From Marchantia polymorpha subsp. ruderalis (Eukaryota > Streptophyta > Marchantiopsida > Marchantiales > Marchantiaceae), in NCBI GenBank assembly GCA_037833965.1, contig AP031356.1, positions 24,884,501 through 24,948,500 on the forward strand: 64,000 nt of DNA, written 5' to 3'. The notes below the pieces were generated by a model. It searched no databases, was not told the origin of the DNA, and saw nothing but the letters and a program-made list of their open reading frames with translations. The position numbers and the translations under genes were made by a program. Shown here in pieces: positions 17,108 through 25,720 of the stretch (position 1 is the stretch's first letter; each line of letters begins with the position of its first letter).

Positions 17108-20100
17108 TTAACCCCCGTAGTCCCCGTTTGAAAATTTGTCCTCTGGGTAGTAAACCGCAACTACAGAATTGCCGGAAAATTTCCTTCCATGGAGAGCTGT
17201 TTTAGCCTTAATCGCACCTTGTGTATCAGCATACTCAACAAAAACCTGCAGTCACGGCGAAGCCATAAACGATTAGTATTTTAGATGCCACCACTTCGAC
17301 ATATTCTGGTACTGTGCATTTCTGTAATTCAAAGCCCTACGTTTCAAAGACTAACATGATTGCATCGCGCACAATTCTGTTCACACAGAGATTCGCCCAA
17401 ACGATACATGCATACCTTTCCGACTCCTGGAACCTCTTCTCCGTCTGTTCTTGGCCTGGGAATGACAACGCTTACAAGGTTTCCTGCAGAAGAGAAAAAC
17501 TTTGATAAGCAAAGTGATGGAAATTGCTCGATCTGTTAGATATTGGACGTGGATTTCTTAGGCGGTCAGCCTTGACCGTTGGATCCTTTAAAGTTCACTG
17601 ACACAATCCTATAATTCAGTTCACCCGGAGTAGAAACTCCTGCTTTCAGGAGTTAGGCACTTCAGTAAGGGTATACCATGTGACGGACTAGGGGTATCCA
17701 TGATCAGTTTATCAGTATTAGTTCCAGACTGAGAACTTCAACAATTTGGAGAGTGCATCATTCTTCGTGACAAATACAAAACGAAACTAATTTCTGAAGG
17801 GCGAATTCAGCTCTAAAACATTTTGAGGGAATGCTGAGACTAGTGGAGGAATACACAAAACACTCAACATAGAGAAAGAACTTACCGAATTTTCCGCACT
17901 CGAGGTTCATATCCTCCACAATCTCCTCATACTCTTCATCGTCCATGAGTTCATTGGGAGCAGCAACCTATTACAGGACATACGTGCTCAGAACTGACTT
18001 ACGTATCAGGTAACGTGTGCCATAGAAAACTATTAATGGCACGAGAGATATCTACAACCTTGGGTTGAGTGGCAAGTTAACAATCGCCCACGTACAAAAT
18101 GAAAATATCACTTCGTCAGATAAGAATCAGATATCATTTGTGGATAGACCGGACACGTTACAAAAGGGAATGCTGAAGCAAGTCAAACATCACCTGTAAT
18201 TAGTTGGAATAAAAAAACTGAAGGCATAAAAGTCCCAATAAAGAGAGCAATAAACGCAGTCGCCACTTTCCCGTACCTGAGTCAAGCAGACGACTCTAGT
18301 GACGGGCTCATTTGAAGAGACGAGGCCGTTCCCCAACCCTGACATCATCCCGGGAATCATTCCGGGAGAAAGGCCAGACATCAAGCTTGACAAACCTCCG
18401 AGAGCCACTGCATTAGCACCACTAGCTTGCAGAGCGAGCTTCTGCAGACCAAAAGCAGAACATCATAAATTCGCAGATACATCCAGAGTAGGCCTGTAAC
18501 TTTGATGGAAACCCAAGAGAGTCAACGACCTTCTTCTTCAAGACGGAAAGGCCACCTGGTCACAGAAGACTCAGTTACCTGCAAGGCTATTTGCTGCTGC
18601 GCCTGAGCCAGAACATTTGCTTGGTCCGGTTTTGGCTGACCACTGTCCACAGAAAGAGCACATGGTTCAAAGAGTAGAATTCAAATTAAAGTAGACAATT
18701 TCACCAGCTGGCCCACTACTCTTCTCACTCCCACAAAGTTCAAAGTACAGTTTATAAACAAGCGAGCTACACAAGAGATGACCTCCACTAGTATTCTACG
18801 AAGTGTAGGGAAGGATGAAGCCAGGACAAATGACAAAGGTTTTCGGAGATAGTCTAGACATACACTTGTCAGGAACGGTAAGGATAGGGCGGACTCATTT
18901 AAAAATCTTTAAGCTTATATCATATTTAGCCCATCAAGGACGGACAAGAACATTTTATGATAAGTGGACATATGCCAACCTCGCAGTGGCACGGCGGACT
19001 GTCAAAGTCTTGTCATCCATTTTCATGCCATTAAGCGTTGCACAGGCAATGTCCACAACTGACGGGTCCTGCACAATTGGCAATTGAAAAGCCACAAGCA
19101 GACAAAAGGAGTAAGATCGAGCAAAACCCCCACCTGGCGGTCGCTCGGCGCACTGTTAAGGTCTTATCACCCATTTTCAAACCATTAAGCGCAGCACATG
19201 CAACGTCTGTTACCGATGGTTCCTGCATATACCATTAATCACGTGCCAATGGGATATCCATCCCAAGAATCAGATTAGTGATTTTAAAACTGAAAAGACC
19301 GCATTTCCAGTAGAATGCTGCATATACTCCAAACCCTGACCTACATTGGAGTTAGTCAGCTCAGTTCAAGTCATCTTACTCGGACGCATACCATACGGTC
19401 AGCCGTTGGAGCTTAGTTATGGATACTACATGGACTCTCAGATGGACCACGCCATCATCCGTGTAAACTAAGTAGCATGCATCAACCGATGTAAACGTGA
19501 TGAAACGCACTAAAGCCCTTCGTGAACCTTTCAAATGCCTTCACAGCACTGTGACACATGACCGCTGTTTTCAAGGTGACACTGGCTGGACAAATATCAA
19601 ATTCCTTGCAAAAACTTCGTGTTTAAAGCAGACACGTTTGACCTTCAAAAAAATGTAACTGTTTGAGGACTGTCTATTTACCTGATATACACAGAATCCG
19701 TATCCTTTTGAATTTCCCGTGTCACGATCTTTGACCAAGTCAAAACCCCGCAACGGCCTGCAAACAACAGGAAATCACAAACTACTCCAATTAAGGCTAG
19801 TAAGTAGGCCCCACAGCCTAAAGCGGCAAAATACAAATAGAATTTTGTACAAATCCAGCTAGACAGTCTTTAGAACTTGGTATCTTCGTATCAAAGTTCT
19901 ACAAATGCCATGACACAGGGAAAAAACTGAAGGAACACGGATTGTTTCCTCTGAATGGTGAAGGAAAAAACTAACCCGAAGGACTCCAATAGCTCCTTAA
20001 TTTGCACCTCAGTCAAGTAATAGGGAAGTCCTCCCACAAAAATTCGATCCGGTCCATCGGCACCCCCGGCTGCGCTGCTACAAAAACATAAAAAGGTGGA

Positions 20101-23100
20101 ACATATTTGTTCAGTACGGCAAAAGGTAGCAAGGTAACATTGATTGCAATGTCTAGGGTATGTCCAAAGACAACTCTCAGTACTTCAACCTAAAGCATGG
20201 ATAGACCACATACCCAGGAGTCAACCCAACAGCTGCAAGATTTAGATGGGGGCTGGGCTGGCTGGGTCCAAGAGTAGCAGCCATTGAAGGATTGTAATCA
20301 CTCGGTCTTCTTACCCTTACAGAAACTCCCTGCACAAGTTAGCACATATAGAGAAACGTCAATTTTTTCACTCAGTCATATCGACTCTATCTAGTAGCCA
20401 GAGTGACCGAAAATATATATTTGAGGAAAAATAATTATTTTGCTTCATGATCTTTCGTTATTGAAGCGGTTCTCTTACCTCAAAAATGATGCCGTCAAGT
20501 GCCATTGCATTGCTGGCCTCTTCGACGGTCCGCATCTCCACAAAAGCAAACTTCTTCTCTTGATTGATGTACACGTTGACCACAGCATCACCTAGAGTGA
20601 CACGAACACAATTCGAGACACGAAAAGCAGACATATTAAAAGCTTGTACTCGGCTAGAAATTGTACTACTTTAGGCAGATAAAGAAAATTGTTCATTCAT
20701 TCTATATGAATTGAGTTCGAGGCATCAACGTACATCTGAATAACTAAAACCAAACATGCATGGTAACACATGCATTCACTTGAATCAGAAACCTGAAAAC
20801 TCTACCTGGTCCAGCAGTGTTTCCGCCGACGGCGGCCATAACTTGACTAAAAAACGTGGCAATAGTCTGAAAGAAAACAGTTGATACGGTGTTAAAAATC
20901 TCAACTGCAACCAAGGCAAGAACCCGGTTGTTCAGACACAAAAATGCACCATGCAGTGATCTGACAGAAAGTAGCCCTGATGGTTTGAGATTCTATTGTC
21001 CACTTGCCTTGATTAACTGTAAGAGCATCTAAGATGATGAAACAAGGAAACGGGCAGAGGGAATGGCCATTCCCATGTGATGACTGACACAGGCACCAAC
21101 AAACAAGTTCAAAATCATCTGCTGAGAGCATTTCTGTACCGTTGAAGGCCTGTGATACATTCTTATGACTAAGAAGATCAAGAGGAACAACAGAAGCTAA
21201 TACCTGCGTATCGTTGTAGCTGCAGAAAGTGCTGGAAGAAGTCTATCGAGCAGTACAGAAACCTAGACGATATTAATAACTATGTCAAACTCACCTGCTC
21301 ATTCGCCATCGGTGGAAGTCCTCCAACGTAAACTCGACGGGCATGTCTTGTGGCCTGCATGAAACCATCCTTAAAGCGTTAGACTCAACAGCCAAGTCAA
21401 ACAAAATCGAAGCATGACCAGCACTGATAACCAAAGTAATAAAAGAATGTTGAGAAAGGTTCTCCGCTATATGATTTCGATCATACCTGCTGTGTCATTG
21501 CTTGCGCCGGCATTGCAGGGAGCCCTCCAAACTAAAAGCGAATCCACAGGTACACACAAGTTTCAAGTCACGAACCGAAGCGGCAAAGAATTTTAATCTT
21601 ACTAGCCAAGTAAGTTTTAAAGGTCCCACAGGCTGAATGACATCCGCATATATCCACAACCCTAAGTATGTAAAATCGACTAACACGTCAATTACCTGAG
21701 TACCACCGAACGGAAACATAGTTGGGAAGACACCTGGCATAGGTTGTGACATTCCTGGTAATTGTCCTGCAATACACACAAAAGGAACGTTCACACTATA
21801 AATCTCCATCACTCACCTGATAAAAGAAGAGGCAGTCTTGCCAGCTTAATAACAGAGTTTAATTACTACAAAACAGCTTATGCGAAAGCGACTGTCTAAG
21901 GCATCTCTCACTTAGACACCTCATGTGCTCCTGATGTCACTCAGATGAGCCTCTTTTATATTTATTCATAGCAATTAATATCTACAATTAATATCATAGC
22001 AATGGTACTGAACGAAGTGGTTGCATCTAGTTCACGACACAACTAACGACAAAAAGTTGCGCACCATTGCGTTTCATGATCGCACACACCAATCTGTTGA
22101 TACTTAAGGCTCCAGACTATGCATGTGGAAATTCAATGGGCAAAGCTACCAGGGCAACAAGAGTTGCTGATTGAAGGTGATCAAATTTCCAACCACTGTT
22201 GCACATACAAGCCCTTGGAGGCACGCTCGAGATGCAGAGGAGATATGGCTCGCCATGACTTCCGCACCCCAAGAAATATGAAAGACAACCACAAACAAAA
22301 ACAATCCAAAACCGACAAGCAAACAAGCGAAAGGTCTCCTCAGTGCATGACTTGGAACTGTAATCACTAGAAGATCATCTGCCAATCCTAAACTGTACAT
22401 ACAAAAGTTATGTATTACTCTTTCCTACGAGGATACGTTCAAATATTCTTACGTGATGTTTAACAAAGCTGAGGAAACAAGCGTAAAGGTGATTCATACG
22501 GGAACTAAGATCTAGATTAAGTAGACTCGCCACCGAGTGAGAGATTTTATAACCAAAAAAAAGGGTTCTTTCAAAAATGAGTTGGAAATGTGGCCCACCT
22601 GGAATTGCCGCTCCAACAACCACCGTAGCGCCAGGCGGTGCCATGTCGAACCCACTCGTCCTTTTGCTGAGGAGATTTCGATAAAAATTTGTCACAACAA
22701 GGACTTGAATCGACAATGACTAGGTGATTAAAAACAAACAGATACAACTTTTGCAGTAACAAAGATGAAACTCGCGGTTCGTGGCTCATTCTATGTCCCA
22801 TTCAATCCCCGATCTGCGTTGACGTGAAATAACCTTTCTGTCAGATATTGTCAATAGGTGTAAGATAATCATACCTCCTTCGATCTCTTGAAGGTGATCG
22901 AGATCTGGACTTCGAAAATTCCCGAGATCTACCCAAAGAACGAGAGCGGGAACGATGTCGGTGTCGCCTGTCACGGTCTCTATCACGGTCGTATTCTCGA
23001 CTCCTTCTGCAGGGCAAATATTTCAAGCCACGGCATGTAAACAACATGATTGAGAAAAGTAACCAAACACGAAACGGTATTGTGGGAGAGCAACAGCTTT

Positions 23101-24236
23101 TACTTCTCTTCACGGCCTTCCTTTCATGTAAGTTTGCAGACAAGTATTATGCGAGAAAAACCAAAAAGACGACGTCATTCAACCTGAGCTGAATAGTTCC
23201 CACAAACAGCTGGCCCAAAAGCCATGCTGAATGAGAGAAAGAACTATTATGCGGAAAGAGGGCCAACTAAAAACTCGGAAAAAGCCATGTCCTTAAATTT
23301 CGACATCGACAACTGATGCAAGAGTCTTGACTGTCAGACACCGTACATGGGCCAAAGACCTTGCAACTCAGGACACCCGAAAATCGACTACTAAACCGTA
23401 GAACAACTTTTGTTCAAGCTCAGAACCTCACATGGTCTACGATTCATATCCTTAAATTAGACAGGGATTGGAGAGCAATAAGCTTCGAATCTCGGGCATA
23501 CTCCAAGACTTTACATCAATGAAACATATGACAAGAACTCACTCAACAGGAACGCAGATTAAAAAACAAAAAATTAGGGCGACTAAAAGTCATCGACCCA
23601 GGTAATGTTGCAGCGCACGTCTTCCGAGGTTCTCAAGAGGGCATATGACACTAAGAAAAAAGGAAAGAAAAGGCTGCATTCAAGTACATAACCAGAGAGC
23701 AGCTGTGTCCTCAGAGCCTAAACAAAAGAAAGTGGTCTAATCTATGGTGGGTTTGAGAGTTTAAGAAAATCAAAGCATCGGTTTGAATCTTCTAGAGTTT
23801 GTATACAACAGCTAGAGGTGACATCCGCCATGCAATTCATTATATCCATGATAGTATATCATCCGTAAACCCTTGTACAAGGAATTTGAGAAAACGAGTG
23901 CTCTGGAAAACAGATTATGGGAGTGTAAAGCATAAGCTTGGAAATCTGAACAAGGGAAGAAAGATCAGAAGCTACTTCTAAAATTAAAACTAAGAGACAA
24001 GTAGAGACTATTTACCTCTCTCTATCATGGCCTTTGTGGTGTTCACGATCACGCTCTCCTCTTTCACCTCTTTCTGTGCCCCTTTCACCTCTTTCGGCCC
24101 TATCACCTCGGTCACCTCGATCGCCCCTATCGCCTCTGTCATCACCCCTATCCCTATGACGACGTTCCCGATCTCCCCGTTCACCATCTTTCTCCCTGCT
24201 TTTTTCCCTCTCCCTATCGGACTCACGGGAGGCTCG
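17108..24236 (-). CDS. U2AF65: Splicing factor U2AF large subunit (U2AF65), spliced
   Basis: This is the large subunit of the U2 auxiliary factor, which binds the polypyrimidine tract and recruits U2 snRNP in the nucleus. Exons on the minus strand, in order: 24236-24016, 23006-22875, 22666-22599, 21766-21696, 21531-21487, 21354-21295, 20866-20806, 20591-20479, 20329-20214, 20077-19976, 19757-19682, then either 19222-19134 or 19068-18980, then 18642-18579, 18441-18277, 17967-17886, 17483-17416, 17245-17108 (TAA). All junctions are GT-AG and the phases close, giving 556 residues from the first located exon. Domains: RD/RE/RG-rich and RS region; KRTSGFDMAPP linker; RRM1 (RRVYVGGLPP to VRVRRPSDY); RRM2 (DRIFVGGLPYYLTE onward); and the UHM from RVVCLTQ to PEDKFSNGDYGG. 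The exon with the initiator ATG, which must end in phase 0, was not found. Confidence 0.95.
18980..19068 (-). other. U2AF65: U2AF65 alternative exon B (89 nt, RRM2)
   Basis: The exon is flanked by TTGTGCAG and GTTGGC splice sites. It has the same length and phases as exon A and encodes DPSVVDIACATLNG through RRATA. It differs from A at 6 of 29 residues (E/D, T/V, V/I, A/T, L/M, G/D) and by many silent changes. It lies 65 nt downstream of exon A. Confidence 0.9.
19134..19222 (-). other. U2AF65: U2AF65 alternative exon A (89 nt, RRM2)
   Basis: The exon is flanked by TATGCAG and GTGGGG splice sites. It encodes 29 residues, starting EPSVTDVACAALNG and ending RRATA, plus two bases of the next codon. 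This is the last helix and last strand of RRM2. Its TD, AALNG and KMGDK positions match the usual plant and animal form, so it is probably the ancestral version. Confidence 0.9.
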
Positions 24237-25720
24237 CTGCAAGACATTCGGTATAATCTCAGTATCTCAGATAAGTGCACTCGCTAAAAACAGTATCATA
24301 TTCTCCCAAAAAGAAGGGACATCTAGAGCTTAGGACAGCAACAAGAAAGGAATATATCCAAACAACGATAAACTTTCACGAATCTCTTGCAAACGGTGGC
24401 TGTACTGTTCAAAATTCCATTAACATGATAACGGTTTTTTGAGAATGAACTAACATATATTTATCGGAACATAATGCTCACAATGTAAGCACTCAGTGAG
24501 TCAACGGCCCTGCCGTAGTCCTCGTTTTTTTAGGCCAAAAAAAGACAGGCATTTTTACAAAAGGGCAAAAGGGCTAGAGAAGCAACGCAGTCTTATTTCG
24601 AATTCAGTGAAAGAAAGATGTGTCTTCAGTGCCAGAGCAACTGTCCTGTTTTTCAACAAAATACTCAGGAGGCCCACGTTCGAGAGCCTCCTGGAAAGGG
24701 GAAAAAAAGCCACAAAGAGCAAGTGGTATGTAGATTCCCAATTTCAAGGCACAGCTATGTGACCAACAAGCTCACAATATGCAACCAAACAACCTTACAC
24801 TATGCAATAGCAGGTGTGCTGGATCACAAAACCCTAGGCATAATCACTATTCGAGCTAAGCACAAACAAATTTATAAAACGGATACACAGAAGACAGAAG
24901 ATATTGTGAATGAGGAACAGACCAAACCCTCACCCATCTCCAAGAGAAAAGGGTGGATAGGAGAAGTAGATAGATGCCACTGGAGACGGCGCAGGCAGAC
25001 AGATCCTCAGAATATAGACCTAAAGCAATTTCTTCGTCCTCGACAGTCTTTGTGTCGCACCGTTCCGCTCGATAAACCTCTCCGTTCCCTCGACTCTCTC
25101 CGCTCTCCGTGGCCGGCCAAGGCCTTGTCCTCAACTCTCAAACTGTACAATAATGCAGAAGAAAGCGCAGGGCAGAGTGGCGCAGAGCGGCAGCTCGCCA
25201 AGCATGGCACAGCAGAGCAAGCAACCCAGCAAAAAGAAACCCAATAGGTCGACACGAGTGACACAAGCAGCAGATCCACCAGCCCTAGCACACAATCACA
25301 CTCTCCCTGACAATCCCTACGAACATCGTCCACCTTCTCCTCCTTCCAACTCCTCCTGTTTGTGTCTCTTGTCTTCTCTTCGAACCCGCTCGAGCACAGA
25401 CAGGGACTCAGAGCACAGCAGAGCAGAGTACCAACAGCAGCGCATCGGCAGCCACAGATCTCCTCTCGTCGCCAACATCAATTACCTTAGGCTTCCTTCT
25501 TTCCTCCCCTTCCTTTGTCTCTGGTTCATCGGATAGGTCCATCCATCCAACGAACTCTTGGTGACCTCCTAGTCTCGAACCCCTTTGGACGGACTTGCCT
25601 TATTAACCACGATTCCGGCCAGCGGACGGATGCACCTCTTCCTCAGTAGCTCACGTGCAACTATCTTATTTGACCGCCCGGGCCAAGAAAGCACGAATGG
25701 TCATATCTTCCATCGTATTT
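24237..25720 (-). promoter_or_regulatory. U2AF65: U2AF65 5' region: missing first exon(s), leader and promoter
   Basis: The gene must begin here or further right, because the exon ending at 24236 starts in phase 0 with no in-frame ATG. Sequence from 25000 to 25550 is GC-balanced and purine-rich on the minus strand, as expected of a leader. A GT donor follows GGAGATG at about 24934, and a good 3' splice site (CCCCTTTCCAG, minus strand) lies at about 24688-24698. None of the ATG-donor combinations I tried gave the required phase together with an acidic or RS-type N-terminus. AT-rich sequence begins at 25.72 kb. Confidence 0.4.

What the first reader, a model, noticed from the sequence alone, without database searches (positions are those of the whole stretch)
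18980..19222. Tandem duplicated, apparently mutually exclusive exons in RRM2 of U2AF65
Seen directly: two 89-nt exons lie 65 nt apart, with the same length, the same phases and intact GT-AG borders. They encode 29-residue segments identical at 23 positions, while most codons that keep the residue differ silently. Many silent and few replacement changes imply that both have been kept by selection for a long time. Known: this part of RRM2 (last helix and last strand) belongs to the domain that binds the polypyrimidine tract. Inference: the plant makes two U2AF65 isoforms with different RRM2 surfaces, so a core splicing factor would itself be switched by splicing. I know of no described case of this in plant U2AF65.
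Basis: partly seen in the sequence, partly recalled or inferred. Interest (0 to 1): 0.93.

Follow-up and report, generated by a model that had tools for sequence, protein, structure and literature searches.

The report
Ancient either-or exons in moss/liverwort U2AF65
In the liverwort Marchantia the gene for a core splicing protein (U2AF65) carries two alternative copies of one exon, only one of which can be used at a time if the protein is to be complete, and the same two versions occur in a moss, so both forms have apparently been kept for a very long time.

Summary
On the minus strand of Marchantia polymorpha chromosome 7, two 89-nt exons (A 19222-19134, B 19068-18980), 65 nt apart, each complete the RRM2 domain of U2AF65. 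Either one alone gives a 561-residue protein; both or neither gives a frameshift and an early stop. The exon-B peptide is in the Marchantia database protein, in Riccia fluitans, in Physcomitrium (28 of 29 residues) and in two further proteins that look like assembled transcripts. Exon A's form recurs in Riccia sorocarpa, Calypogeia, Sphagnum and Physcomitrium. Two Physcomitrium proteins are identical at 536 of 545 aligned residues, with all nine differences inside this exon, so one moss gene evidently makes both isoforms. A gene tree built without the exon rejects the B carriers as one lineage. The simplest reading is one exon duplication before mosses and liverworts split, kept ever since. 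The closest known case is the vertebrate partner gene U2AF1 (exons Ab/3), a different gene and domain. Exclusion by the cramped 65-nt intron plus nonsense decay is inferred. No RNA-seq was available, and the function of the two isoforms is open.

The parts
17108..24937 (-). U2AF65 gene, coding span from ATG to TAA, 19 exons counting both alternative exons; either isoform has 561 residues
   Evidence: isoform B matches NCBI Marchantia protein P0001 at 100% over the residues searched. Exon 1 and the start of exon 2 are set by analogy with the Riccia fluitans and Calypogeia proteins
19682..19757 (-). exon 12, constitutive in this model, RNP1 part of RRM2 (ends ...GYGFCVYQ)
19223..19681 (-). intron 12 (459 nt), before exon A; acceptor with 7 pyrimidines of 16, the fewest of the 18 acceptors
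19134..19222 (-). alternative exon A, 89 nt, EPSVTDVACAALNGLKMGDKTLTVRRATA
   Evidence: same type in Riccia sorocarpa, Calypogeia, Sphagnum, Physcomitrium
19069..19133 (-). intron 13 between the alternatives, 65 nt, shortest of 18 in this gene (next 132); its only YTNAY branch-point-like site is CTTAC, the A 22 nt from A's donor and 44 from B's acceptor
18980..19068 (-). alternative exon B, 89 nt, DPSVVDIACATLNGMKMDDKTLTVRRATA
   Evidence: same type in 7 of 184 listed cluster representatives, including Marchantia P0001, Riccia fluitans and Physcomitrium
18643..18979 (-). intron 14 (337 nt), after exon B; weak donor GAG|GTTGGC, second lowest of 18 by a small matrix
18579..18642 (-). exon 15, constitutive in this model, joined to A or B in frame

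Best explanation
Exons A and B are a conserved pair of mutually exclusive exons in U2AF65 that arose by one duplication of an 89-nt exon before mosses and liverworts separated. The gene makes two full-length U2AF65 proteins that differ in six residues around helix alpha2 and the alpha2-beta4 turn of RRM2. Shown: the anatomy, the frame logic, both peptide versions in several bryophytes, and two such isoforms in Physcomitrium at the level of database proteins. Inferred: (1) A and B cannot be joined efficiently, because the only consensus-like branch site of the 65-nt intron lies 22 nt from A's donor, which leaves little room for U1 and U2 snRNP together; the choice is therefore 12-A-15 or 12-B-15. 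(2) Messages with both or neither exon carry an early stop and are removed by nonsense decay. (3) A has the pyrimidine-poorest acceptor of the gene and the better donor of the two, B the weaker donor, so the ratio may respond to splicing-factor activity, possibly U2AF itself. (4) The two isoforms favour different introns or partners.
For: Anatomy and frame: A alone and B alone give 561 residues; both give 404 residues with the stop in exon 14, 422 nt before the last junction; neither gives 387 residues with the stop 295 nt before it. Conservation: over the 184 cluster representatives listed by three protein searches, 7 carry the B signature (T and D at positions 11 and 18 of the exon peptide), 175 have A and G there, one G and G, one S and G. 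B is 28 of 29 identical between Marchantia and Physcomitrium, A 24 of 29. Same gene: Physcomitrium P0010 (B) and P0015 (A) agree at 536 of 545 aligned residues, all nine differences inside the exon; they also differ by a 15-residue stretch absent from P0010. Tree without the exon (31 rows chosen by hand): mosses and liverworts each hold A and B carriers, and forcing the 5 B carriers into one clade is rejected (p-AU 5.3e-64). Purifying selection: pS 0.67, pN 0.11 between A and B. Intron 13. The ~50-nt donor-to-branch-point threshold is stated in PMC7969005 (passages).
Against: No RNA reads were available. No A-form Marchantia protein is among those listed by the three searches; the one Marchantia record of this gene is the B form, in a cluster of one sequence. 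Exclusivity in moss rests on database isoforms, P0010 from UniRef and P0015 from NCBI and others; the RNA behind them was not seen, and one gene is inferred from identity. Representatives of 90% clusters hide isoforms, so A/B co-occurrence within a gene could be checked only for Marchantia (DNA) and Physcomitrium. The ~50-nt threshold comes from other organisms and was recommended for vertebrate introns, and the branch site is a pattern match. A stretch from before exon A into exon B folds no better than shuffles (z 0.20). Splice-site strengths rest on 15-16 other sites of one gene; by matrix A's acceptor is only fifth lowest of 18 and B's donor second lowest, exon 1's being lower. G326V/R in human U2AF65 is described as not touching RNA, against an RNA-affinity role for that site.
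Confidence: 0.87

Rival explanations
1. One exon is the working one and the other acts mainly as a poison exon: joining both gives a frameshifted message that is destroyed, so the pair tunes the amount of U2AF65 rather than making two proteins.
For: Both-in and neither both give early stops well before the last junction. Only the B form was found as a Marchantia protein among those listed. Autoregulation by unproductive splicing is common among splicing factors (recalled).
Against: A pure poison exon need not keep its peptide. B is 28 of 29 residues identical in moss and liverwort, and A stays RRM-like, with silent changes prevailing. Physcomitrium has full-length database proteins of both kinds.
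Confidence: 0.08
2. The exon pairs of moss and liverwort arose separately, or were made alike by gene conversion.
For: Only one genome's DNA could be read here; moss intron positions were not seen.
Against: The B forms share the same state at all six A/B sites in both groups; T and D at the two signature sites occur together in no other of the 184 proteins. Conversion between A and B would erase, not create, the difference.
Confidence: 0.04
3. A and B mark two different genes in other species, so the match to Marchantia is a coincidence of paralogs.
For: Physcomitrium has proteins of several U2AF65 genes, and Marchantia itself has a second gene on the same chromosome.
Against: The Marchantia paralog has one exon of this kind, of another type, and no second copy in the 9.9 kb scanned. 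The tree without the exon does not follow exon type. P0010 and P0015 are one gene by identity.
Confidence: 0.03

Closest known systems
Vertebrate U2AF1 (U2AF35) exons Ab and 3 (PMC5224494, abstract and Introduction read; PMC6821156, abstract read)
   Same: The other subunit of the same U2AF dimer: tandem homologous exons, few residue changes (seven there, six here), inside an RRM-type fold including a helix alpha2; transcripts with both or neither exon carry stops and are lowered by NMD; kept through vertebrate evolution.
   Different: Different gene (small subunit, UHM) and domain; 67-nt exons; vertebrates. Here the large subunit, RRM2, 89 nt, mosses and liverworts. I take the two to be independent.
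OGDH exons 4a/4b (PMC7969005, passages read) and alpha-tropomyosin (seen only as a reference there)
   Same: Exclusion by a branch site too close to the donor of the intervening intron (25-41 nt there, human).
   Different: There branch points were mapped experimentally; here a single pattern match at 22 nt in a 65-nt intron. The OGDH intron is 118-131 nt in birds and mammals.
Plant U2AF65A/U2AF65B gene-family surveys (PMC8635922, passages; PMC12027700, passages and section 2.7)
   Same: Same family, Marchantia and Physcomitrium included; PMC12027700 reports that U2AF65B genes of M. polymorpha, P. patens and S. fallax are alternatively spliced.
   Different: Neither main text contains the term mutually exclusive. 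The first chose the longest coding sequence where a locus had several isoforms, which would hide an exon pair of equal length.

Membership tests
U2AF65 (U2AF large subunit) | RS-rich N-terminus, RRM1, RRM2, C-terminal UHM-type RRM | tested here: met
   RS-rich start and 561-residue model; RRM_1 in two stretches of P0001; the best solved matches to the B-form RRM2 are named U2AF 65 kDa subunit; the model shows a third RRM-like fold at the C-terminus, overall confidence low, mean pLDDT 60
Mutually exclusive tandem exons | Adjacent homologous exons of equal length and phase | tested here: met
Mutually exclusive tandem exons | Exactly one exon keeps the reading frame | tested here: met
Mutually exclusive tandem exons | Natural products with exactly one exon, of both kinds | tested here: inconclusive
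   Both kinds for one Physcomitrium gene at database-protein level; only B listed for Marchantia
Mutually exclusive tandem exons | RNA junction reads show exclusivity | not testable with these tools
   no RNA-seq held
U2AF1 Ab/3 exon pair | Lies in the U2AF small subunit gene | tested here: not met
   the gene is the large subunit

The most novel reading that the evidence does not exclude
The exon pair dates to the common ancestor of land plants, and vascular plants lost exon B. Its ratio is a built-in sensor of U2AF activity (pyrimidine-poor acceptor on A, richer one on B), so bryophytes tune a core 3' splice-site factor by a self-reading splice switch that vertebrates reinvented in the partner subunit.
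Probability: 0.2. Interest if true: 0.92.

Novelty: new member of a known kind. Interest (0 to 1): 0.8.

Why it matters
Mutually exclusive homologous exons are regarded as rare in plants (recalled), and one pair kept across mosses and liverworts in a core splicing factor would be a remarkably old plant example. It sets a natural experiment: the two subunits of one heterodimer have each acquired either-or exons, one in vertebrates and one in bryophytes. Marchantia and Physcomitrium are both easy to edit (recalled), so exon-specific deletions could show directly what a six-residue change in RRM2 does to 3' splice-site choice.

Tried and rejected
Recent duplicate or assembly artefact: rejected, since synonymous sites are near saturation and the flanking intron bases are not alike. 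A second copy in the paralog: none in 9.9 kb by a six-frame scan with both peptides (next best score 17 against 127). A regulatory RNA fold from before exon A into exon B: no signal; pairing with distant parts of introns 12 and 14 was not examined. Placement of P0007 outside mosses and liverworts (for instance a hornwort): not supported; it joins liverworts weakly (87/69), and joining mosses is not rejected (p-AU 0.153). My first exon 1-2 model was replaced after comparison with the Calypogeia and Riccia fluitans N-termini; the splice-site scores used the old model and were redone, after which B's donor is second lowest instead of lowest and A's donor falls from 7.96 to 6.98. A published minimum intron length for plants was sought in one search and one paper without result. 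A Schistosoma U2AF65 paper that matched the search terms uses the words only for a class of splicing events. A second structure job, for isoform A, was not run, because the tool returns no coordinates with which to compare surfaces.

Full report
Identity of the window. The genome search places the window at C7:24884501-24948500 of a 241-Mb, nine-contig genome. The best protein match is an NCBI protein of Marchantia polymorpha subsp. ruderalis at 100% over the searched residues, with a longest contig of 28,253,430 bases, the same length as contig C7. The window is therefore Marchantia chromosome 7 (the chromosome number is read from the contig number).

Gene model. Reading the minus strand by eye and by script gives a U2AF65 gene with 19 exons, ATG at 24937 and TAA ending at 17108. 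My first choice of the exon 1-2 junction was changed because the Calypogeia protein P0005 begins MGEGLRASRESD and the Riccia fluitans protein P0004 MGESLRASRESD (Riccia sorocarpa P0002 begins otherwise), and the window gives the former with exon 1 at 24937-24923 and exon 2 from 24236. This makes the exon 1 donor unusually weak, so the very start stays provisional. The database protein P0001 starts at an internal Met and lacks the RS region.

The pair. Exon A (19222-19134) and exon B (19068-18980) are each 89 nt with the same phases. The peptides share 23 of 29 residues, and 14 of those 23 codons differ silently. The two exons are 67 of 89 bases identical; pS is 0.67 (dS 1.72, close to saturation) and pN 0.11 over 29 codons. 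In 20,000 random placements of 22 changes without stops, 6 or fewer replaced residues occurred at a frequency of 5e-5. The repeat ends near the exon borders. The Marchantia paralog, with matches from C7:25375303 to 25378477 and fetched as L010, has a single exon of the same 89 nt (L010:5404-5492) and no second copy within the 9.9 kb scanned, so the unit duplicated was probably one whole ancestral exon.

Frame logic. A alone or B alone gives 561 residues. Both together give 404 residues, with the stop inside exon B (exon 14) 422 nt upstream of the last junction; neither gives 387 residues with the stop 295 nt upstream. Both faulty products would be expected to undergo nonsense decay (established rule, not tested here).

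Relatives. The first (isoform B, residues 180-556) found 1558 proteins and listed 120. The second (exon B with its borders, 40 residues) found 135 and listed 120. The third (exon A likewise) found 336 and listed 120. Together they list 184 distinct cluster representatives; the unlisted hits were not seen. At the two positions where B departs from the rest (11 and 18 of the exon peptide), 7 of 184 have T and D, 175 A and G, one G and G, one S and G. The seven are P0001 Marchantia, P0004 Riccia fluitans, P0010, P0012 and P0013 Physcomitrium patens, P0006 (unnamed, JGI, a 1937-base contig carrying 572 codons, hence probably spliced RNA) and P0007 (EukProt, a name in the style of an assembled transcriptome). 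The A type is found in Riccia sorocarpa P0002, Calypogeia fissa P0005, several Sphagnum and Physcomitrium P0014/P0015. Physcomitrium P0035 is also A-like but carries an extra residue near the start of the exon segment. Representatives stand for 90% clusters, in which A and B isoforms of one gene would usually merge, so a missing type in a species means little.

Same gene in moss. P0010 and P0015 agree at 536 of 545 aligned residues; all nine differences lie in the 29-residue segment. P0010 also lacks a 15-residue stretch that corresponds to Marchantia exon 6. I infer one gene with two isoforms from identity, not from locus tags.

Tree. A tree of 45 of the 184 proteins without the exon, cut to start at the RRM1 region, gave the moss and liverwort proteins of this gene as separate groups, each containing A and B carriers. 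On 31 rows rooted with charophyte algae, forcing the five B carriers (P0010 left out, being identical to P0015 outside the exon; P0012 not used) into one clade costs 171 log units (p-AU 5.3e-64). P0007 falls with the liverworts at 87/69 and is not firmly placed. Exon type therefore does not follow gene lineage. B is 28 of 29 identical between Marchantia and Physcomitrium, A 24 of 29, and A of Calypogeia against Physcomitrium 25 of 29. The simplest history is one duplication before the moss-liverwort split, more than 400 million years ago by general knowledge (recalled). B shares methionine at position 15 with the 6 algal rows compared, whereas A shares leucine there with the 11 vascular-plant rows. 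This hints that A and B parted before vascular plants split off, but it rests on very few sites.

How it probably works. Intron 13, 65 nt, is the shortest of 18 in the gene; the next is 132. Its only YTNAY site puts the branch A 22 nt from A's donor. PMC7969005 gives about 50 nt as the proposed threshold for U1 and U2 binding together and describes exclusion by branch points 25-41 nt from the donor in OGDH (passages); that is vertebrate work. By a small weight matrix from the other donors of this gene, B's donor scores 4.81, second lowest of 18 after exon 1's 1.05, and A's 6.98, ninth lowest. A's acceptor has 7 pyrimidines of 16, the fewest of 18 (the other 17 have 8 to 13), while B's has 10; by matrix A's acceptor scores 3.99 (fifth lowest of 18) and B's 5.98. 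I read this, cautiously, as a balance in which A and B compete, with crowding and frame enforcing one or the other. That U2AF itself sets the balance is a guess from analogy: isoform-specific U2AF35 expression depends on U2AF65 (PMC5224494, abstract).

What differs in the protein. The exon covers helix alpha2 and strand beta4 of RRM2 in the model (P0001 residues 231-259; helix 233-242, strand 253-257; pLDDT of these blocks 59-70). Aligned to solved U2AF65 (human by recall and by PMC7408900), with F304 and V308 placed by PMC7408900, the exon corresponds to human 309-337 and the six changes to 309, 313, 315, 319, 323 and 326 (my count). The two B-specific sites are human 319 and 326. G319V altered splicing less severely than G154V, with a smaller drop in melting temperature and still detectable RNA binding; G326V/R is in the alpha2-beta4 loop, solvent exposed and not touching RNA.

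Literature. Ten searches of the open-access library were made; among the titles and abstract openings listed, none describes mutually exclusive exons in a plant U2AF65. Two family surveys contain Marchantia and Physcomitrium but not the term mutually exclusive in the main text; one reports alternative splicing of U2AF65B genes in M. polymorpha, P. patens and S. fallax (section read; its Figure S7 not seen, so the pair may be drawn there). Most subscription papers, and preprints, are not in the library.

Verdict. As a system it is a new member of a known kind, tandem mutually exclusive exons, with an unusually old and telling location.

Noticed in passing
window 21531-21487: Exon 6 (45 nt, FGGLPAMPAQAMTQQ in phase) looks like a frame-keeping cassette: Physcomitrium P0010 and P0013 lack the matching 15 residues while P0015 and P0012 have them.
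   Followed up: partly
window 20080-20075: Exon 11 acceptor is a NAGNAG (TTTTTGTAG|CAG|CGCAGCC), which would give proteins with or without one residue in the RRM1-RRM2 linker (sequence).
   Followed up: no
L010 (G000:C7:25370500-25380400): Second Marchantia U2AF65 gene about 0.47 Mb away on the same contig, opposite strand, with one exon of this kind (DPSVMDIACAALNGLKMGDRTLTVRRASA); this type also recurs in Riccia, Calypogeia, Sphagnum and Physcomitrium.
   Followed up: partly
window 24937-22667 (N-terminal exons): The database Marchantia protein P0001 (431 residues) starts at an internal Met and misses the RS region, which the window encodes; the record appears truncated at its start.
   Followed up: partly
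protein P0003 (Ambrosia artemisiifolia, 898 aa): Predicted protein with two copies of the RRM2 segment starting 227 residues apart; probably a fused or misannotated tandem rather than an exon pair.
   Followed up: no
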